From positions 3,361,501-3,425,500 of the forward strand of contig NC_092702.1 of assembly GCF_964275005.1 (NCBI RefSeq): a stretch of 64,000 bases of DNA, in the 5' to 3' direction. Source of the DNA: Diadema setosum. Lineage: Eukaryota > Echinodermata > Echinoidea > Diadematoida > Diadematidae. The notes under the pieces are model-generated. The model was not told the DNA's origin, ran no database searches, and saw only the letters and a list, made by a program, of their open reading frames with translations. Positions 17,037-56,781 of the stretch are shown here, piece by piece. Both the position numbers and the translations under genes were made by a program. Every line of letters starts with the position of its first letter. The first letter of the stretch is position 1.

Positions 17037-26535
<9,499 letters not shown>

Positions 26536-28338: not shown

Positions 28339-30162
28339 GGCATGACTTAACTTAGCATTGATCAGTTGTTGCTAGGTAGGGCAAACATCTGATAAGTTAG
28401 TGATTGTAATTGCGATCTCTTATGAACAAAGCATGCATAGATGCAGAGAATTTGAATACATTACAGAGATGGTCTATTGAGTAGTTTGCTGACCCAGGAG
28501 TTATTAAAAAAAACTGATATTCAAAGCTGATATGAAGCTAAATGGCTATTGAACCAGGATGTCTGTTTCATAAGCATGTTACTGAGAATTGCAATTTTGA
28601 ATGATTGCAGTTACCGTAGGAGCAATTGGGCAACAACTAATCAGCTTCAAGCCTGTGATTTGTTGCCATAGTAACTGCAATTATCACAGTTTTCAGTGAT
28701 TGCAAAGCCTCAACAAGATGGATTCTCCAGCTTCATGCTTACAAAATTTGAGAAAATGGTTGTTCCAAGTTCTAACATGGAACAGCGAGGCAGATTTGTG
28801 ATAAATTTTTCTTCACATGTAAGCAGCATCATGCAGGATTTTATTCATTCCATTGTCAGTGTAATAACACTGTTACAATGCATTGACTACTTGTTTTGTT
28901 GTATAATACATTGTATGGTACACAGATTGTGCGCTGCACTGTGGTTTGATACACAGATTGTACGTAACAGTACTCAGATTATTACCATGGCAACACAGAC
29001 TATACCATTCTCCACAAGCTCTCTTTCGTACAGTTATGTGTAAAGAAAAGATTTTGTCTTGAGCATTTTGATTTCATGATGATGACTCTTCTTAATTTGT
29101 TTAGTTAATTGTGAGTTCCCCATATGAAGCAAAAATGATGAGATTGATATTTGTGAATATGTTCACAGTTGTGCATTTCAAGGAAGTTGAAGGTGTTTCT
29201 TTGCACACTGAACATTTACATTATGAAATGTTTTATGTTGTTATTTTTTGCCACACCAAACACTCCATCATTGACTTTCAGTTTCATCTACGGAAATCTT
29301 GCCTTACTAACGTGATCAGAGCAATACTGTATCTTGATATGTGCATTGCAGTGACGTCAAAGCGCTTTGAAGAGTATCGCTGATAGCTTTATGAACCAAA
29401 TTTTAAGATAGAAACATTGCAACATTGAATGTCAATGCATGGTACTGATAGCTACATCTCTAGATACAGTGTGATGAACGTCTTTAACTGCTGTTACTTT
29501 TATTTAAACATATTGCATGCATGGCTCAAGAACACATTGTGGCACTAAAATCAAAATTACAGTTTTCTTTTCATTGATTGAAGAGGAGAGATGTTTTAAA
29601 TTCACAATTTTGCTCTTTCCATGTTGTACAAATAGAGATATTTCTGGCACAGAGCATGAATTGTAGTTTGGATAGGCATGGATAGGCCTTGTCCATTGCA
29701 ACAAAAAAAGTGGGGCTTTTTTTTTATAGTGATTTTTTGAACGTCAAGGTTTTTCTATCTGCACTAGACATTGATGTTGTAACTTTTCAGTCAGGAGTTG
29801 AAATTTTCAGACTTGTCAACAGACCTACCTAGTCTCACCCATCTTGGGGGTCTTTCTCATGCTCACACGCCTGACAAGCTTTTTCTCACGCCTCTCATAA
29901 ACAAAACAAACAAAACAACAAAACAAAAACCCCTCAAAACATGGATTTCCAACTGTCCTAAAAGTTACATTTTTTGAAACAACATCTTTTCTAAAATCAG
30001 AATAAGCCAAGATATTATTTTAAGTATGCACCAGAGCACACAATTTACAGCTTATAAATGGCAAAGCTCCTGCAACTTGGGCGGGATAACACTATGGTGG
30101 CATCACAACTGAGAAATCTTTACTATGATGACTGCTACGATACTTCTAATAAGCAGGTACTA
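28339..30162. other. T-rich gene-free stretch
   Basis: No gene or dispersed repeat is recognised except an X-box-like GTTGCCATAGTAAC at 28662-28675, in a segment with inverted ATTGCAATT/AACTGCAATT-type sequence. May be PCGF1 3' UTR. Confidence 0.35.
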
Positions 30163-30741
30163 ATCGGTGTAAGACCGTACTAACATCTTTAACCACACTT
30201 TAGTGACTGGTTATCCTCCTTTATGTTAGTGGCATGGTGAGGATGGGATCACCAATCTTATTGTGCAAGACTGAACTAACATCTTCAACTATACTTTCCT
30301 GAATGTTTATCATCCTTTATGTTAGTGGCATGGTGAGGATGGGATCACAAATCTTATTGTGCAAGACTGAACTAACATCTCCAACTATACTTTCCTGAAT
30401 GTTTATCATCCTTTATGTTAGTGGCATGGTGAGGATGGGATCACCAATCTTATTGTGTAAGACTGAACTAACATCTCCAACTGTACTTTCCTGAATGTTT
30501 ATCGCCTTTTATGTTAGTGGCACGGTGAGGATGGGATCACCAATCTTATTGTGTAAGACTGAACTTACATCTTCAACTATACTTTCCTGAATGTTTATCA
30601 TCCTTTATGTTAGTGGCATGGTGAGGATGGGATCACCAATCTTATTGTGTAAGACTGAACTTACATCTTCAACCATACTTTACTGAATGTTTATCGCCTT
30701 TTATGTTAGTGGCAAGGTGAGGATGGGATGAACAATCTTAT
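30163..30741 (+). repeat. Six-copy tandem array of a 96-bp unit
   Basis: The landmark ATGTTAGTGGCA... recurs at 30223, 30319, 30415, 30511, 30607 and 30703, exactly 96 bp apart each time, so no indel has been fixed between units. Units differ by a few substitutions (for example CATGG/CACGG/CAAGG). Confidence 0.9.
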
Positions 30742-47100: not shown

Positions 47101-50100
47101 ATGTTGTCTTTCTATCAGCTTGCCAATGATGCATGCAAATTTTCATTTTCAAGAGTTATTTTAATCATTCGGTAGAGTTCATAGAGCTATGTAGCATACA
47201 GGCAATGGTGCGGGTCCTCAGAGTGAGGATGCTGTTAGAAATATATTCCAGTGTGGCAGCACTGTCTGATGTCCATCTTCAATAACTGTGGGAAGTACCT
47301 GTTCAATGATGATGTTTGTGACGATGATTTTCTTGGTAGGAGTGAGGAGGAGAGGCAAATTCATAATCCTGGTCCTCCACCCAGAGTGAGACGTCTCTAT
47401 GGGGAATTCCTCCTTGATGAGTTTTCTGTGCGCCTCCTAGCCAGTCGCCGTGGCAACGCATCACCAAAGGGAGATGAGCACAACTCAGGCAGCGATTCTT
47501 CTCCATCTCATGGCATCTGCAGTGTGGATGGATGTAGGGTGGCCTCCTTGTTCGGAAGTGCGTCCAGGAGCAGTGTCCTAAAGCTACAGGAGCTTGGACT
47601 TGACCCGATCACCAAAGATGGAGGAAAAGGCTGCCAAGGAAGCACTGAGTATGACGATACAGGATTACTCCCCCAGAGGACCAGCAGCATGGTTTCACTT
47701 TATCAAAGTAAGCCAAGGTTTGACCCCCCCCCCCCCAAAAAAAAAAAAAAAAAAAAAAAAAAACAACAACCAATATGTATACTTGTAATATATGTTGTTC
47801 AAGTAGCAAAATGGTGACTTTACTTTAATAACAACCTTTATGAATTGCTGATAGTGTGCTTTGTTTGTGTAAAATATATAAACTATGTTCAGTGTTTTAA
47901 CTTTTATTGCCTGCACGATCTCCTTGTTGCAAAGGTATTGGTGAGATGAAGGTTTTGATTTTTGATAGAACATCTGCTTGTCACGCAGGTGGTTTTGCAG
48001 AGCTATGCCCTGAATCAGAGAGAGGCACACCTACATCAGAGCAGGTTGAGAGGCAAACCAAGGTGAGATATTGTGTGGCTGCATTAATTGTGATGTTTTG
48101 GCAGTTTGGCACAGATTATTTTCCATACTATTTCATGAGAAGAGATACTCCTGATCTACTTCTCCTTATTTTGAAGAATAAGAAGATGTTAAGAGATTTC
48201 TCAAAGGAGAATCTACTTTGAAAAACAATGTTTTGAAAAGAAGGAAAAAAGAAAAGTGACTTAAAAGTAGCCTACAAAAATAATAAATGTTGTACGGTCA
48301 ATGACTTAATGTTAAATGATGTGAAACAACATGATTTTTTTTTTTTTTTAGAAAAGAGGAAGGTACAAAAATGTGCCTCAAAGTAATTTTTGTTAATATT
48401 TCTTTCTCTCACAGAGCACTAATAAATACAGAATTTGTGGTTATATGTATCCTGTGATTCTTAAAACTTAAAGGAAAGTGTGAGCCAAGATGAGATCCTG
48501 CCGGAAGAAGTGTGGCTGCCTACATACATTGTACACCAGGATGACAAGACCATTCTCTTCCGCCCGCTCGGCGAGTGGAGTTCATCAGAAGAGGCGTGGC
48601 GCATCCCAAAGGTCCTCTGGAGGAGGCCAGCCGATGGAGCCTGGTTTGTGAACGAAGTCCTGGGAGACACCACAGCAGCCAAAGCCTGCTTTGTCCCAGA
48701 GGATGCCTGGTTGGCAAGCTGGGGCCTCTGCCCGGGAGACTCCCGAGTTTATAGCGTAGGTCCACCCCTACCGGTACTGCAACCAATGCCAGGTGTCCTT
48801 AATCCTGCAGATGGAGGAATGGTGGATACCCTTAAAGGCCAGACCGTTCTAAGTAGGCATCATCCAGAGGAGCTGTCTTGTTGGCCCATACCTGGAATTC
48901 CTTTGCCTGTTACCTGGCAGCAAAGTTGCCAGGAAGGAAGAACCACTTCTGACCCTAGTGTCTGGTATCACCAACTGAGAGATTCACCCAGTTCTCCGCC
49001 TCAGATCCAGAAAGCTGCAAGTGTTTGTGATGCTTCCACATTAGAGTCCAGACCTCTACCAGACCCAGATGTTTGTCTCCAGTCTGTCTCCAGGACTGCC
49101 CACCACTTGGAGTCTCCATCATCAACTGTTGACAAGTCTGTGATGCTTCATCATGAGGGAAATCTTCTGGAGCTTCAGTCTCATGGTGAATGCCAGGCAA
49201 GTGTGCCTTTCCATTATCATGTCATGTTTACTTTGATATTCAGAAATTATGTTCTTTGTAATGCAGGTAAAAACAGGAATAGAATGATATATCAATTAAA
49301 CTTGAGAAGAATGCAACAAGTATCGTCCAGCATATCTTGTTAAGACTTTAAGATGAACTAATTCATATATGAAGCTTGTGGGATTTGATTTTCAAGTTTC
49401 ATATAATGCCTTCTTCTCAGCCATTTTCAACTTTGGATCCTGAATAAAGCTATCAAGTTGCCTGAGGTGTTATTGAACGCTTAAAGTCTGTGCAAAATCA
49501 CAGTTTCAGTTCATAAAACAAATCATTTGATCAACTTTGATTACAGAGTGCATAACATCAGCAGTCCTCAGTTAATTTCATGCTTGATTATACCCCCGCC
49601 AAACAAAGTTCGAAGGGGGTATATAGGAATCGGCGGACAGTCGGGCGGTCGGTCGGTCGCGCGGTCGGTCCGTTGCAAATTTTGCATCGCGAACTACTTC
49701 TTCAGTTTTCAACCGATTCCCATAAAACTTGGCACAGATGTGTGCCTTGGGTTGTAGATGTGCAAGACGTATTTTTTGACAGTACCCAAAAGTATGTTGC
49801 CATGGTAACGGCATATTATGGGCAAAAATGGGTACAAATCTTGCGTCGCGAACTCCTCCCACAGTTTGTGATCAATTTTTATGAAATTAGGTGCAGATGT
49901 TCATCTGAATATGTTAATGTGCAAGACACATATTTCCGCAGTGGCAAAAAGTGCGTTGCCATGGTAACGGCATGTTATTGGTAAAATATAGGGCAAAATG
50001 CTTCATGGCAAAACTGCTTCGTCAGTGTTCTTCCAATTCTCATGGAATTCATATTGAATGTTTGTCTTAGGATATAGGTCAGCATGACACATTTCTTGAC

Positions 50101-53100
50101 AGTGACAAAAAGTATGTTGCCATGGTAACAGCTCACATATTATGAGCCAAAATGATGGAAAATTTTGTGTTGCAAACTACTTCCTCAGTTTTTGCCCAAT
50201 TTCCATGAAACTTGGTACAGATGTGTGCCTTTGGTTGTAGATGTGCAAGACGCATTTTTTGACAGTACCCGAAAGTACGTTGCCATGGTAACGGCATATT
50301 AATGGCAGAAGATCAAGGAAAGATCTTGCGGATTTAACTACTTCCTCAGTTTTTTGACCAAAGCTTATGAAATGTTGTTTGGCGGGGGTATAACCAGTCG
50401 CTGTAGCGACATTTCTAGTTAGACTTTGTCTTTGATGATTTAAATGTTTTTTAGTTTGTTCGTTTGTTTCAGGATGTGGCCATTGACAGATGGGATGGGC
50501 TGGATGCAATGGCTACTCCATTGCTTGCGAGTAATGGCCTTCAAATAGCTACATCACCTTCAACAGTCCTACCAACCAGCTTTGAACCAGCTTTTGTGTC
50601 TCCTGATGCAGTTTTGTCACACGCCCCAGATCATGGGCCATTTCCACAGCAAGATGTCAGCCATCATGACCATCAAACTTTCGGGTATCTGCAACATTTG
50701 ATCAAAAAATGGCTTAGCCTTCTCAGTAACCAGAGGGATCGATCTGCTTGGCTTGTTGAATTTCACTTGATGGATCTCCAAATCAAACTAGATCACTTCC
50801 TCGTTGATTTGATATTTGATTGATTCATTTGTCTACATTTTATGTCATCTTTTATGTTATTTCTAGAGCCAAAAGCTCCCTAATGTCATACTGTTCTGTG
50901 AGTGGTTGAAAATGTTGATCTCATCACTGACCTGTGATATTGTATAGTTAACAAGATATTAGATCTCTGAGACACTTAAATCCAGTGCGTACTCCCTTTA
51001 CTCTTTGTTAAAATAAAAGAAATTATAAAAAAAAAGGAAAGGGGGCACGTGTGCCCTCTTTTATTGTTTTTATTTTTATTTTGCACCCCACCCCCTTTCC
51101 AGAATTCCTAGATCCACCCCAGTAAATCACACTGTCTGCATAACATTGTTGCAATATATGATGTACAGTCAAGTAAACACATTGTGAATCTAGTTTTTGA
51201 GACATGCATACTAATTTGTTTAGACGTAATATTTCAGTTAAACCAGACACAAATCTCTGTGTGGACTGTCCATTTCTGGGTACTGTGATTGTGAGATGCT
51301 ATTTCATGTTATGCTCTGTATTCTAGATCTTCCAGTGAGCTACAGCAGTATGAAGCACAGAGTACATCCTATGACGTCCATGTGCCATCTACAGTACAAG
51401 AAGCTCTCAGCATGGTCCAGGTAGGCAATGTTTGAATTTAGGGGTCAGAGTAATTTTGATCTCCTGAGACACTCTCTTGTAACAACTATTGCTTTTGTGA
51501 TGTTTCAGGGATGGATTTCTCATTTATTTGATTTGGGGCCTCGTCACTTTAGAATAGTGAATAATGCAAGAAACTAAACAACATAACCTATGTTAAACTA
51601 TTTGGTAACTTATTTCATTAGTTTCTTTTTTTTCAGCTACAATGTATGTGCAATTATGCCACTTTAAAGCAAAACATCAATGGTGTATAGGTGACTCCCA
51701 TTATAACAAAATTCTCATGACTGCAAGTTTTCTTTCATTATATCAAAATTCTGTTATAGCCAAACAATATCATATATAAAGAAATAATATATCTTTATAT
51801 ATTCAATTGTTCAGCTATAACAAAATTATATGTTGATCACTATTAGTAGGCCTTATATATTATAAAGTTGACAATTTTTGAGCGTGAACTTTTACTTCAT
51901 TGTAACAAGATTTTCATTATAACGGTGTTCATTGTGATGGGGGTGCACCTTACCCTGTGTATTTTCACACTATGTTATGCAATGAGTTCTCCTTTTTTAC
52001 TTCTCATACAAAATTTTTGCTTTGTTTGCTTTGTTTTTTTCAGGATTGTGAAGATGTGGATAGCCTTGGACAGCTGCTGTTTGAGTGGTGCATATTGGAT
52101 GTTCCCTTCAGAAGGGACTGGGATGTTGTTGGTAGGATGGATGGGAAGCTAAAGAGGTCTCGGCCCCAGTCTGCCCAGGACTTCTGCAGGTTTGCTTGTG
52201 GCTTCCATGCAGCCTCACAGAGAGGTAGGAAATAATGGGATTCTTACAGGCATTTATTTGGTCATTCTTGTACTTGAGGTTTCAAAGTGCCAGTTGAATG
52301 ATTGTTTAGGAAAGTGTAGTTCACAGAAATACATGGTAGGCATTTGAATGAAAAGAGTCCCATTTCTGTGTCAGATCAGTGAAAATGTAGAATCAGGCAA
52401 ATAAGAACTTTATGGTAGAAAGAATGTCACTCTGTAGTCATCCATCATGAGGAAAGATATACATATCAATCTAAATTAATTGTGTAATAAAATGCATTAC
52501 TGAGATGATTATTGGAATTATAGATGTGACTAAAGACTGTCGGTCAACCCCTGTCTGCATGGAGGGACTTACAAGGAGATTGTGATTTGTTTTGGAGTAT
52601 GTGAGTAAGAGTCATCAATAGTCTTCATTTCCAAGAATATAATAATTATTTTGACAAAGTTATTAAGTGTGAGTTTATTCATCAGACCAATGTTAATCAG
52701 CAACTATCATGAAGAATGTCCTACTTGATAGAGGCTTGTTAAAATTGATCAAAAAACCCAATTTATAAAGGTTGTTGCTGTCCCTCTGGGGAAAGAATGC
52801 ATTTATGAGTAGAATTAGCTGACTAGGAAGGTGGATGATAGATGAAACTTGGAAGATATGACCTTTAAGGAATTATCCCAAAGGGCAGTTGAATTAGATG
52901 TCAATATTATGCAGAAGGCACCCTTTGGCTTCGAAAGAATTGATCACCACTGCAAACAGTATGTAAATAGGATAGTGACACACACTTGCTCCTGCAAAAA
53001 TTATCCCGGTCTTATTTTCTCGAAGGACTTAGGGTAAAGGTTTTGATAGGGTTTTAGGTTTAGTTAGATGTGAGGATTAGGATTATGGTTATGTGTGTGG

Positions 53101-56100
53101 GTAGAATTTATGTTTGGCTTAGCCTGCAGATATTTTGTGGGAGCAATTGTTGCAGGAACAACTGTCGTGGAATAAAGTGGGATACACCACTAACTGGTCT
53201 TATATTGTGGCTTGCTGTAGCCTGTTCAAGGTCTTAGTATGAAGCATTTGCTGTTGCACAATACTTCCTGCATTTGATGAGGTGGTGAGAGATTTCTGTT
53301 TCTGCCTTGATAGCAGAGAAGTTTATGTATGACACAAATTCTTCAGAGAATCGTGTCTGAGCTGTGCGACAGAAACACAGTCTCTGTCTTTTGATTGCTA
53401 CTTCTCCTGCACTGAGGGATGGTACTTATCATGATATTAGTGTCGGGGTTTTTTTTTCCTTTGCTCTCATATTGTATTCTCTTCTTTTCATCTCTGAGAA
53501 GCTCACTTCACCACTCCCTTCGAGGACCAGTCCACCATTATCTATCTCGGACTAGCAGCCTTCAGTAGGTGCCGAGATTGCCATGACACTTCAGAGATGA
53601 AGCTCGATGAAGACGCTTACTGCATCCTTCAGATGATTCTGCACCTCAAGCTCCCACTGACTGAAGTGCTGGCATCCTCACCTGGTCTGTTGCCATGGCT
53701 ACCTGGAAAGCCAGATGGACTGCTGCTCAGGGGTGTACTGACAGTACTGGTCGACTTTGACCCCATCACAGCCTTCAGCATCCTTCAAGGTGGGCCGACA
53801 ACTTTTTGTTATTTTGTTGTTCTCATGCACCATATTCAGTTGGATGTTCGCCAGTCACATGACCATAGAAAAGTTCTAAACCAAAGATGAGTTAGTCACT
53901 CACAGAAAGACATTATTTACATTTTTAAGCATTTTATAGTCTTGCTCAAAACTCAGACTTTTCATTTTTTTTAAAAGAAATGTTTGCTATGATTGGAATA
54001 AAAGGAGCTTTAAAAACAGTTTAGTTTGTCTTATGACTGTTTGACATATTTGTCACCAAAATATTTGTTTCATTCTTTCAGGTAAATGTAGATAGATAAG
54101 TGTAATGAGGATAATAGGAGATGAAAGATATGTTGTTGTTGTTGTTGTTTTTAATCCAAGTCAACTGCTGTTAAGTAGTTAAAAGTAGTTGCCCAATAAT
54201 GAATAGTACAGACGATGTGTATGTGAAAGGGTTCATAAGAAGTGCTAAGGTCAGGATTGATTTCAGAGTGTGACATTTCAAATGCATCTCCTGTGTTACA
54301 CCTTGTGAAAAGCTTGAGTATTGTTTAATTTGCCCAGGAATCGGTTGGACCCACTTGTGCTGGGAGGAACCAGGTATCAGGGAGGTGTTTGGTCAACAGC
54401 TCAGCAGTCTTGTGGAAGTCTTGCTGGACTGCGGAAACTACCAACACTGCCGCACTGCCCTCACCCACCTCCTCAACCTTGACGGTATGTCAATGACAAA
54501 GATTCAGTTGCAAGTTGCATATTCGTAGCGAAAGGTATTCCTTTTTGCATTGAATACAGATGACTCCTGGGACCAGCAGTTTTCTTTCCTTATAGCTGAA
54601 TATATAAAGAATATAAAGATACGTGTATGGAGATTATTATTTTGCGACCTGAATTTCTACTTCGTTGTAACAGGATTGTGTTATGAATGTGTTTGTTATA
54701 ACGGGAATGCACTGTAGTCATCGTTTGCCCGGTTCAAAATTATCTTCGTCTAATATGGTGGTAGCAGACTCTCTAGATGGAAGTTTAGCCTTGCTGAAGG
54801 TGATTGGTTGTTTACGTGACATACAGAAATAGAAATTTGCTGAAGCAAAGTACCATGAAATACCACACTCGGGATGTTTGACTAGATATATTCTTGCATA
54901 AAGTGACATGAATTAGTTAAGTTTTAGATTTTTAAGACCACAGTGTCAAGAACAGATTTTTACAGTCACAAGTCATTATACCCCCGCCAAACGAAGTTTG
55001 AAGGGGGTATATAGGAATCAGCGGACGGTCGGGCGGTCGGTCCGTTGCAAATCTTGCGTCGCGAACTACTTCCTCAGTTTTCAACCGATTCCCATAAAAC
55101 TTGGCACAGATGTGTGCCTTGGGTTGTAGATGTGCAAGACGTATTTTTTGACAGTACTCAAAAGTACGTTGCCATGGTAACGGCATATTATGGGCAAAAA
55201 TGGGTACAAATCTTGCGTCGCGAACTCCTCCCACAGTTTTTGATCAATTTTTATGAAATTAGGTACAGATGTTCATCTGAATATGTTAATGTGCAAGACA
55301 CATATTTCCGCAGTGGCAAAAAGTGCGTTGCCATGGTAACGGCATGTTATTGGTAAAATATAGGGCAAAATGCTTCATGGCAAAACTGCTTCATCAGTGT
55401 TCTTCCAATTCTCATGGAATTCATATTGAATGTTTGTCTTAGGATATAGGTCAGCATGACACATTTCTTGACAGTGACAAAAAGTATGTTGCCATGGTAA
55501 CAGCTCACATATTATGAGCCAAAATGATGGAAAATTTTGTGTTGCAAACTACTTCCTCAGTTTTTGCCCAATTTCCATGAAACTTGGTACAGATGTGTGC
55601 CTTTGGTTGTAGATGTGCAAGACGCATTTTTCGACAGTACCCGAAAGTACGTTGCCATGGTAACGGCATATTAATGGCAGAAGATCAAGGAAAGATCTTG
55701 CAGATTTAACTACTTCCTCAGTTTTTTGACAAAAGCTTATGAAATGTTGTTTGGCGGGGTATAACCAGTCGCTGTAGCGACATTTCTAGTTTAATTTGAA
55801 AGACACATAATTACTACTAGTTTTCATGGAATTTGTAAAAAGTTGTGATTCTTTAGTGGAGAATATGCTAGTTTCTGCATGTGAAATCGTAGATTCAACT
55901 TTGTTATGATGATGTTTATGAAAACAGATTTTCTCAGCAAGAGATAACATGCATTCTAAGTTTGCAGTTTGTTGTGCTGTTTCCAAAATGTAGATGAGAG
56001 ACAATCTTGTTGCCAACTATACAACAGCCTCCTCAGCAAGGTACTTGATACGTGTGGCAGATGTCCTTCAGCCATGGCCATCTTTGAAGACATGATGGAT

Positions 56101-56781
56101 GCTGGCTTGGTGGTCAACACCCCGACCTTGAGCAAACTCCTCACGTTGATGTGGAAGTCACCAGACGAAGAAGGGTACGAGGATGCACTCTGCGTGTATC
56201 ACTATGGACTCGGTCTCGGGGTGTACCCAGTCCACACAAGGCGGGGCACTGTCTGGGAGGCCACCGTCTTCCTTGGCGCTTCCGATGCCGAGATATTCTT
56301 CACCCTGAGGACGCTCCTGGACCAACTCCTGGACTGGCTGGTAGCGGAGTGTGGAACTGGTGGTCCTGGCCCTACAGATGATGGAGGGGCTGTTGAAAAT
56401 GGTGTTTTGGAGGAGAGAGTCACTGACAGGCATTCCAAAGGCCACACCCTGGAGGGCATGATGCCAGCATCTGGTCCTCTGGACAGGCAGCTGAGTTGTC
56501 ATGAAGGTATAGTGCAGAGTGTGAACATCTACATCAACCTCAGGGAGGCTCCAGATGCGGTGAGGGACTGCCTCCTATCGGAGGATGAAATGTCGATTGA
56601 CGTGTTTGCCAGGATGCTGAGCACCAAGAAGGCGATTCAGAACTCACTGAAGGAGAACTTCCAACCACTGACTGTCAGACTCCACACGAATGGGTCAAGC
56701 GATGGGTCCTCCAACTATGCTTACACTCTTGCTTTCAACCGAGAACCACTCAGTTGCTGGTTACTAGACCTTCTGGACTAG
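44133..56781 (+). CDS. Large AT-hook protein with C-terminal helical repeats; candidate TOPAZ1-family orthologue
   Basis: Eleven exons join without a phase error: 44133-46065, 46474-46708, 47340-47707, 47989-48062, 48474-49196, 50473-50684, 51327-51420, 52044-52224, 53499-53789, 54338-54484, 55994-56781. The product is 1681 aa; human TOPAZ1 has 1692. Three AT-hook cores (GRPRK/GRPRQ) lie at about residues 294-301, 374-380 and 401-410, in a basic, disordered region. Residues about 880-955 are Trp-rich and compact. The region about 1180-1681 is helical with a PPR-like pattern; YHYGLGLGVYP followed by a hydrophobic helix resembles the TOPAZ1 C-terminus as I remember it (YHYGKSLGIYP). TOPAZ1 is a germ-cell protein needed for male meiosis in mice; vertebrate copies are not known to me for AT-hooks. 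The acceptor of exon 2 is the least certain border. Exon 5 ends at a GC donor. The family call is tentative; the exon chain is firm. Confidence 0.75.
49197..50472 (+). other. GC-AG intron (intron 5 of the large gene)
   Basis: Exon 5 ends TGCCAG and the intron starts GCAAGT, the standard GC-donor consensus. Only this border gives phase 0 to match the next exon (GATGTGGCC after TTTCAG). The nearby GT at 49186 would put a stop codon just after the junction. Confidence 0.7.
49589..50418 (+). mobile_element. Helentron-like element, family H, copy 1, with four RFX X-boxes
   Basis: The 5' inverted repeat TTATACCCCCGCCAAACAA is followed by a short (GGTC)n-like tract, then four tandem units of about 160 bp plus a partial fifth. 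Then come the inverted repeat TTGTTTGGCGGGGGTATAA, a hairpin GTCGCT-gt-AGCGAC, and ATTTCTAG before T. This order matches that described for Helentron-derived HINE/DINE-1 elements. Each full unit ends in GTTGCCATGGTAAC (49796, 49955, 50116, 50279). It lies in intron 5 of the large gene. Open frames across it are artefacts. Confidence 0.7.
50984..51120 (-). mobile_element. Family D MITE, copy 5, diverged
   Basis: Reverse orientation. The inner GGGGGCACGTGTGCCC palindrome and the terminal CCAGAATTCCTAGATCCACC are recognisable; the other end is eroded. It lies in intron 6 of the large gene. Confidence 0.5.
51690..51955. mobile_element. Family F MITE, intron 7 of the large gene
   Basis: Starts near CCCATTATAACAAAATTCTC and ends near CATTATAACGGTGTTCATTG, imperfect inverted ends around TTATAAC. 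Relatives lie at 33838-33925 and 54550-54716. Confidence 0.45.
52225..53498 (+). other. Intron 8 of the large gene
   Basis: No named repeat. Ends in a long pyrimidine tract and CTCTGAG; a second AG three bases later (GAGAAG) would be an equally phased acceptor that drops one residue. Confidence 0.5.
54550..54716. mobile_element. Family F MITE, intron 10 of the large gene
   Basis: Shares AGCAGTTTTCTTTCCTTATA at the left and TTGTTATAACGGGAATGCAC at the right with the other family F copies. Confidence 0.45.
54977..55789 (+). mobile_element. Helentron-like element, family H, copy 2, with four RFX X-boxes
   Basis: Nearly identical to the copy at 49589-50418 and in the same orientation, in intron 10 of the same gene. 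Differences include a shorter GGTC tract at the left and one fewer G in the right inverted repeat. X-boxes are at 55168, 55327, 55488 and 55651. The left flank ends in T and the right flank begins with T. Confidence 0.7.

What the first reader, a model, noticed from the sequence alone, without database searches (positions are those of the whole stretch)
49589..50418. A transposon that carries four perfect RFX X-boxes per copy
Each ~160-bp internal unit contains GTTGCCATGGTAAC, which fits the RFX consensus GTNRCC-N(0-3)-RGYAAC exactly and is fully or almost palindromic. The sites are 159, 161 and 163 bp apart, close to a nucleosome repeat minus linker, and are among the best conserved bases of the units. 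RFX factors drive ciliary genes and, in mammals, spermatogenic genes. A mobile element that spreads regularly spaced RFX sites could build ciliary or germline regulatory modules; conservation of the site in diverged units hints at selection or at a role in the element's own transcription.
Basis: partly seen in the sequence, partly recalled or inferred. Interest (0 to 1): 0.75.

Follow-up and report, generated by a model that had tools for sequence, protein, structure and literature searches.

The report
Transposon repeats that keep RFX sites
A small, very abundant sea-urchin-type transposon carries about four copies of a textbook binding site for RFX, the cilium-gene switch protein; the site is the part best kept between its diverged repeat units, although individual inserted copies decay much like ordinary junk DNA.

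Summary
Copy 49589-50418 carries four exact GTTGCCATGGTAAC sites, and a second copy (54977-55789) carries four more. The element has the anatomy of a HINE, a non-autonomous Helentron: subterminal inverted repeats, microsatellite, ~160-bp central repeats, 3' hairpin ending CTAG, insertion before T. The 913-Mb host genome encodes bindin, so it is probably a sea urchin. It holds 9,238 exact GTTGCCATGGTAAC sites (about 8 expected); of the first 100 listed, 92 have another within 520 bp.

Conservation depends on what is compared. Among 13 diverged unit lineages of three related families the X-box is the best-kept 14-mer (0.98 against 0.69 outside it), varying mainly at one position where RFX allows C or T. 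One family was found without using the X-box. Among individual copies the X-box decays at or near the background rate, so host selection on insertions is not supported. My reading is constraint on the source elements, most likely through RFX binding that helps the element spread; binding itself is untested. Anatomy and precedent are known (oyster HINEs, Drosophila ISX); my searches of the held library found no report of an RFX box in Helentron repeats.

The parts
49589..50418 (+). Copy 1 of the element (HINE family A), 830 bp, inserted between T (49588) and T (50419)
   Evidence: boundaries by comparison with copy 2 and 88 genomic copies
49589..49606 (+). 5' subterminal inverted repeat TATACCCCCGCCAAACAA (copy 1)
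   Evidence: the repeat finder I1, arms 95% complementary
49608..49623 (+). inverted repeat complementary to the 5' subTIR
   Evidence: the repeat finder I4, 81% complementary
49632..49672 (+). GGTC/CGGTCGGT-type microsatellite
   Evidence: sequence, the repeat finder D4 at 49634-49665
49677..50318 (+). four central repeats, starting at 49677, 49836, 49997 and 50160 (159, 161 and 163 bp apart); a fifth partial unit follows to about 50373
   Evidence: the repeat finder D1, D2, D3
49796..49809 (+). X-box 1 GTTGCCATGGTAAC
49955..49968 (+). X-box 2 GTTGCCATGGTAAC
50116..50129 (+). X-box 3 GTTGCCATGGTAAC
50279..50292 (+). X-box 4 GTTGCCATGGTAAC
50375..50392 (+). 3' subterminal inverted repeat TTGTTTGGCGGGGGTATA
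   Evidence: the repeat finder I1
50397..50410 (+). 3' terminal hairpin GTCGC-TGTA-GCGAC
   Evidence: sequence
50415..50418 (+). terminal CTAG, followed by host T
   Evidence: sequence; the next base is T in 88 of 88 copies
54977..55789 (+). Copy 2 of the same family, 813 bp, inserted between T and T
   Evidence: 96% identity to copy 1; boundaries
55168..55181 (+). X-box 1 of copy 2
55327..55340 (+). X-box 2 of copy 2
55488..55501 (+). X-box 3 of copy 2
55651..55664 (+). X-box 4 of copy 2

Best explanation
The element is a HINE (non-autonomous Helentron, a rolling-circle transposon) of a probable sea urchin. Each full central repeat carries an RFX X-box, GTTGCCATGGYAAC. Shown: the anatomy, insertion before T, high copy number, the X-box as the best-kept segment between unit lineages that are otherwise about 61% identical, near-background decay of the X-box in individual copies, and a host gene with an RFX1-type DNA-binding domain. 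Inferred: the X-box is held by selection on the source elements, because copies with bound sites spread better. The likely route is a host RFX protein bound at several sites per element, holding the element open or transcribed in cells that pass to the next generation, so that Helentron enzymes supplied by an autonomous partner can reach its ends. After insertion most copies drift. Thousands of X-boxes are thus seeded in the genome as raw material for RFX targets, without evidence that particular ones have been adopted.
For: Anatomy: matched to the Helentron descriptions in PMC4067079 and PMC7492417. Between units of copy 1 (copy 2 gives the same counts): X-box 14/14 invariant, rest 64/151, p=1.4e-5. 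Families A+B, 9 lineages: 13/14 against 20/142 invariant, p=2.2e-9, the one variable column being C or T where RFX accepts Y. Family E, found by its 5' end and not by the X-box: all 8 units found by an X-box-masked profile hold an X-box-like site; mean majority share 0.973 against 0.781, p=2.4e-4. 13 lineages: X-box is the top 14-mer window, 0.981; the next is 0.86. Counts: GTTGCCATGGTAAC 9,238 (8.4 expected, reversed control 1), GTTGCCATGGCAAC 2,076 places (5.2 expected), GTTACCATGGTAAC 692 places (3.4 expected, reversed control 4). RFX DNA-binding domain in the genome: 10 matches, best E 1.4e-22; one exon matches hRFX1 1dp7 at E 2.1e-32. In family A no X-box variant outside CpG is shared by two copies, against 33 shared variants elsewhere in the core (about 2.9 expected in the X-box).
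Against: No binding, accessibility or expression data. Copy-level X-box conservation is absent or weak. An autonomous partner with this 3' end was not found: 11 Helitron_like_N matches on contigs C1-C3 all lie more than 65 kb from the nearest exact tail; tails with mismatches were not compared. The element has no recognised gene of its own, so transcription is not obviously needed. Two other segments (GATGTGCAAGAC and CTTCCTCAGTTTT) are also conserved, less strongly, which RFX does not explain. Family B was found through the X-box, and unit lineages are related by descent, so the column tests overstate independence. One of the 8 elements found by the 5' end has no recognisable unit and no X-box (L153). 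Of 50 listed GTTGCCATGGCAAC places 40, by eye, have no second one within 520 bp, so not all perfect X-boxes are in arrays of one spelling.
Confidence: 0.5

Rival explanations
1. The 14-mer is conserved for a reason internal to the element (recognition by the Helentron replication protein or its single-strand-binding protein, or a recombination or hairpin signal within the repeats), and its match to the RFX site is coincidental.
For: HINE and satellite repeats in bivalves keep short palindromes or motifs without a known RFX link: a conserved palindrome near the repeat junction in DTC84, two conserved motifs in BIV160/Cg170 (PMC5139131 passages). Constraint acts at element level, as expected for such a signal.
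Against: The sequence matches the published classic Rfx palindrome, spacer AT included. A hairpin would predict paired changes at positions 4 and 11, but position 4 is G in all 13 lineages while position 11 is C in two and T in the others, which leaves a G:T mismatch. The further spelling GTTACCATGGTAAC, also allowed by RFX, occurs at 692 places.
Confidence: 0.25
2. Host exaptation: inserted X-boxes are retained by natural selection on the host because they regulate ciliary or germline genes.
For: [quoted passage not shown] In old B copies non-CpG X-box bases differ at 0.064 against 0.093 (nominal p=0.02).
Against: Family A copies: no difference (p=0.36). B units: X-box 11.3% against 14.9% (p=0.24), 45% of off-anchor windows equally conserved, outer bases changed in 48% and 30%. 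Only 11 of 53 B units keep the exact palindrome.
Confidence: 0.07
3. Passive explanation: the units share a recent origin or are homogenised by gene conversion, and the X-box is just the segment that escaped divergence.
For: Units within an element are paralogous and u1/u4 are 87% identical. Element length and site number vary, so units are gained or lost.
Against: Conversion would keep whole units alike, yet lineages have diverged to about 61% mean identity (45% at the lowest) while 13 of 14 X-box columns stay fixed. Family E shows the same.
Confidence: 0.1
4. The sites recruit RFX to the element's disadvantage or neutrally, for example RFX1-type repression or nucleosome phasing that keeps copies silent and so spares the host.
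For: Several sites per element at near-nucleosomal spacing. RFX proteins can repress as well as activate (recalled).
Against: Spacing is not fixed (139-148 bp in the family E elements read; 57 of 70 spacings on C1 at 143-164 bp). Selection at element level should remove sites that only harm spread.
Confidence: 0.08

Closest known systems
HINE / non-autonomous Helentrons (DINE-1 of Drosophila; HINE-Mo of mites), PMC4067079
   Same: subTIRs, inverted repeat beside the 5' subTIR, microsatellite, central tandem repeats, 3' hairpin, insertion at T-rich sites
   Different: the passages I read report no RFX site in their repeats
Cg_HINE elements of the Pacific oyster, PMC7492417
   Same: same module order; GTCC-type microsatellite; short arrays of repeats mostly 140-180 bp; motifs shared between otherwise dissimilar repeats (Cg_HINE_4)
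   Different: sequences not compared here (figure alignments not held); the word RFX is absent from the main text
Tsp transposons of Strongylocentrotus purpuratus (Cohen, Liebermann and Kedes 1985), classed as DINE-1-like in PMC4067079
   Same: sea urchin element of the same class; possibly the same family
   Different: the paper is not held, so sequence identity and any X-box remain unchecked
ISX of Drosophila miranda, PMC4384637
   Same: a transposable element (Helitron-like, as I recall) that distributes binding sites for a host chromatin regulator
   Different: binding and host selection are reported there (abstract); here only sequence evidence, and host selection is not supported
RFX X-box of ciliary genes, PMC3414849
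   Same: GTTGCCATGGCAAC is named the classic palindromic Rfx site; the window's site differs by C to T at position 11, allowed by RGYAAC
   Different: there it concerns sites at genes, here tandem sites inside a transposon

Membership tests
HINE (non-autonomous Helentron) | subterminal inverted repeats, the 3' one tens of bases inside the 3' end | tested here: met
   18-bp core arms 49589-49606 and 50375-50392; 26 bp remain after the 3' arm
HINE (non-autonomous Helentron) | short inverted repeat next to the 5' subTIR, then a microsatellite | tested here: met
   49608-49623 (I4); GGTC/CGGT run 49632-49672
HINE (non-autonomous Helentron) | short palindrome (hairpin) near the 3' end | tested here: met
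   GTCGC-TGTA-GCGAC, 8 bases before the end
HINE (non-autonomous Helentron) | insertion at T sites with no target duplication | tested here: met
   base after the 3' end is T in 88 of 88 copies; both window copies are T|element|T with otherwise unlike flanks. The base before the 5' end was T in 45 of 88 by a fuzzy start match, which leaves the exact 5' base uncertain; empty sites were not sought
HINE (non-autonomous Helentron) | short array of central tandem repeats | tested here: met
   four units, starts 159-163 bp apart
HINE (non-autonomous Helentron) | no coding capacity | tested here: inconclusive
   830 bp crossed only by stop-to-stop frames of up to 142 aa among those listed at 90 aa or more; these frames were not scanned for domains
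HINE (non-autonomous Helentron) | ends shared with an autonomous Helentron | tested here: inconclusive
RFX X-box | fits GTNRCC-N(0-3)-RGYAAC | tested here: met
RFX X-box | bound by an RFX protein | not testable with these tools
   no binding data; the host has RFX DNA-binding exons
Tsp transposons | sequence identity with the 1985 elements | not testable with these tools
   paper not held

The most novel reading that the evidence does not exclude
Helentron repeats in this lineage depend on RFX: several consensus-optimal X-boxes per element are needed for amplification, because RFX-bound chromatin in the germ line or ciliated precursors is where the element is mobilised. The ~160-bp 'satellite-like' central repeat of such HINEs would then be an enhancer array kept by transposon-level selection, and the main source of perfect X-boxes in the genome.
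Probability: 0.3. Interest if true: 0.8.

Novelty: new variant of a known kind. Interest (0 to 1): 0.58.

Why it matters
Central tandem repeats of HINEs occur in insects, molluscs and sea urchins, and I know of no function for them. A consensus-perfect transcription-factor site that is their most constrained segment gives a directly testable function. If the first listed sites are typical, most GTTGCCATGGTAAC X-boxes in this genome sit in such arrays, so motif counts, RFX target prediction and ATAC motif enrichment in such genomes need transposon masking. It would also be a clean case of selection on the element separated from selection on the host.

Tried and rejected
MITE with terminal inverted repeats: rejected, since 26 bp with a hairpin and CTAG follow the 3' repeat and the flanks show no target duplication beyond T. 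Nucleosome-spacing argument: rejected as special, since spacing follows unit length, which differs between families. Relatives in other collections: the paired X-box pattern gave 0 matches in viral contigs and 0 in genome contigs; a unit motif gave 1 viral match, a chance hit in a coding-like stretch; a third viral pattern gave 0. Cross-species comparison therefore failed. An X-box-masked unit profile on 119 sequences (window plus 118 loci) gave 625 hits; the last 60, the only ones printed, look like the partial fifth unit. Families C (L124, L125) and D (L126) were looked at but not used in any test. The Bindin control (0 of 14 named genomes) carries little weight: the same 14 also gave 0 for RFX and for Helitron_like_N, so they may hold no animal. 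Paper searches used for the novelty statement: (all 10 allowed). The 28 loci found with a pattern that contains the X-box were left out of the copy counts. Other rows dropped: 2 of 90 copies without a 5' end; 5 of 88 copies of 1000 bp or more; 2 of 27 B units; 16 of 69 profile hits without the X-box region aligned or too short, then 5 of 53 units in clusters under 4; L149's first site, left out of the 14 units.
Full report
WHAT IS THERE. The window contains two full copies of one element, at 49589-50418 (830 bp) and 54977-55789 (813 bp), 96% identical. Each has, in order: a subterminal inverted repeat TATACCCCCGCCAAAC, an inverted repeat complementary to it, a GGTC-type microsatellite, four central repeats about 160 bp apart, a partial fifth repeat, the second subterminal repeat, a 5-bp-stem hairpin, and CTAG followed by T. 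These are the features given for HINEs, the non-autonomous Helentrons, in PMC4067079 (passages read) and for the oyster Cg_HINEs in PMC7492417 (Results and the first part of the Discussion read). The element is therefore a family of a known kind, not a new kind of transposon.

HOST. The window lies in a 912.7-Mb, 102-contig genome. It encodes bindin (Pfam PF02084, E 2.9e-54), a protein I recall as a sperm protein of sea urchins and other echinoderms. The 14 control genomes gave no match, but they gave none for RFX or Helitron_like_N either, so that control says little. No species name came from any call.

THE SITES. Each full repeat carries GTTGCCATGGTAAC. The four sites in copy 1 and four in copy 2 are exact. 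PMC3414849 calls GTTGCCATGGCAAC the classic palindromic Rfx site (two passages read). The window's form differs only at position 11, C to T, which RGYAAC allows. The genome has 10 matches to the RFX DNA-binding domain. One exon, read from L155, matches human RFX1 in PDB 1dp7 over 59 residues at E 2.1e-32. I recall, not from a call, that 1dp7 holds RFX1 on a palindromic X-box.

ABUNDANCE. The 37-bp 3' end with up to 3 mismatches occurs 684 times. GTTGCCATGGTAAC occurs 9,238 times; the reversed control once; 8.4 expected from an order-1 Markov model of the window. GTTGCCATGGCAAC occurs at 2,076 places (5.2 expected) and GTTACCATGGTAAC at 692 (3.4 expected; reversed control 4). Of the first 100 listed GTTGCCATGGTAAC sites, all on contig C1, 92 have a same-strand neighbour within 520 bp; 57 of the 70 spacings are 143-164 bp. 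Of 50 listed GTTGCCATGGCAAC places 40, by eye, have no second one of that spelling within 520 bp, so not every perfect X-box is in an array.

CONSERVATION BETWEEN UNITS. In copy 1 (and equally in copy 2) the X-box is invariant at 14 of 14 columns across the four units, against 64 of 151 elsewhere (p=1.4e-5). A search for paired GTTGCCATGGCAAC sites found 104 places and led to an older family B, with six to eight X-box-like sites in each of four fetched stretches and, where I read it (L122), the same type of 5' end. Across 9 lineages (4 of A, 5 clusters of B) the X-box keeps 13 of 14 columns, the rest 20 of 142 (p=2.2e-9); mean pairwise identity is 61%. B was found through the X-box; of its five clusters, three (8 units) carry the T11 form, which the search pattern did not ask for. 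To avoid that bias I sought elements by a 17-base piece of the 5' end alone: 9 hits, 8 fetched, the ninth being L122. Of the 8, two are family A, two are a new family E with units 139-148 bp apart (L151, L152), three look older (L148, L149, L154), and one has neither units nor X-box (L153). The full units that an X-box-masked profile finds in the seven others each hold an X-box-like site, with up to 3 mismatches (compared by eye). In E the X-box majority share is 0.973 against 0.781 (p=2.4e-4); over the 14 non-A units aligned, 0.908 against 0.720 (p=9e-5); those units were cut at their X-box-like sites. With A, B and E together (13 lineages) the X-box is the best 14-base window, 0.981; the next are TAGATGTGCAAGAC 0.860 and ACTTCCTCAGTTTT 0.813. 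Columns and lineages are not independent, so the p-values are guides only.

CONSERVATION BETWEEN COPIES. For family A, 90 copies were taken from 100 listed exact 3' ends (of 684 counted), which favours young copies. Two had no recognisable 5' end and five were 1000 bp or longer; 83 plus the two window copies were aligned. Median divergence from the majority sequence is 0.6%. Outside CpG the X-box has 12 changed cells of 4238, all singletons; the rest of the core has 264 of 48189, of which 187 are singletons. Singleton rates do not differ (p=0.36; distinct variants p=0.12; column test p=0.055). At CpG the rates are alike, 16 of 508 against 94 of 2696. No X-box variant outside CpG is shared by two copies, against 33 shared variants elsewhere, where about 2.9 would be expected in the X-box by site number. 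That hints that X-box mutants do not found new copies, but it is weak. For family B, 20 loci were chosen by an anchor outside the X-box, giving 23 anchored units. The X-box differs at 11.3%, the rest at 14.9% (p=0.24), and 45% of off-anchor windows are as well kept. A count within clusters gives 37 of 576 against 564 of 6079 (0.064 against 0.093, nominal p=0.02), while the outer X-box bases, which are CpG, changed in 38 of 96 cells (other CpG bases 94 of 341). Only 11 of 53 units keep the exact palindrome. So inserted copies decay at or near the background rate.

READING. Conservation among source lineages with decay in copies is what selection on the element, not on the host, leaves behind. 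The tolerated change (position 11, C or T) is one RFX accepts, and position 4 stays G in these 13 lineages, so the pattern fits protein recognition better than a hairpin that would need paired changes. RFX is the best-named candidate. That it binds, and that binding helps the element spread in germ-line or ciliated cells, is inference. An internal function for a Helentron protein is the main rival.

PRIOR ART. HINEs and their satellite-like repeats are known, sea urchin Tsp transposons are classed with them in PMC4067079, and bivalve repeats keep short motifs or palindromes (PMC5139131 passages). Spread of binding sites by a transposable element of this kind is known from ISX (PMC4384637, abstract and outline; PMC4067079 passage on D. 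miranda), and RFX motifs are noted in pig SINEs (PMC10471783, passage). I found no paper in the held library that reports an RFX site in Helentron repeats (searches; listings, with passages read from those named here and from PMC11136912 and PMC8615465).

Noticed in passing
L126:349-987 (G000 contig C4): A separate array with five X-box-like sites (including GTTACCATGGTAAC and GTTGCCATAGCAAC) 139-172 bp apart in units that look unlike families A, B and E; perhaps another repeat that keeps RFX sites.
   Followed up: partly
L124:554-718 and L125:560-724: A different dispersed repeat with two GTTGCCATGGCAAC palindromes 151 bp apart, seen at several places; no unit similarity noticed.
   Followed up: partly
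genome, listings (for example C1:32853052-32854276): GTTACCATGGTAAC sites often come in groups about 1 kb across; at three of them a GTTGCCATGGCAAC lies 144-152 bp away, suggesting one more X-box array family.
   Followed up: no
genome: 21 open frames of 3276-3517 aa with a Helitron_like_N match: a seemingly intact, perhaps recently active rolling-circle transposon family.
   Followed up: no
window 48465-56781: Both HINE copies appear to lie in introns of a gene on the + strand; the open frame 55960-56781 has a sub-threshold PPR_2 match (E 0.069) and reminds me of the germ-cell gene TOPAZ1 (recalled, untested).
   Followed up: partly
window 28662-28994: Two X-box-like sites (GTTGCCATAGTAAC on +, GTTGCCATGGTAAT on -) 319 bp apart, not matched by the element in a BLAST of the window.
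   Followed up: no
window 30167-30741: Six tandem copies of a 96-bp unit, 92% matches.
   Followed up: no
window 18743-18900: Perfect (AAC)n run of 52.7 copies.
   Followed up: no
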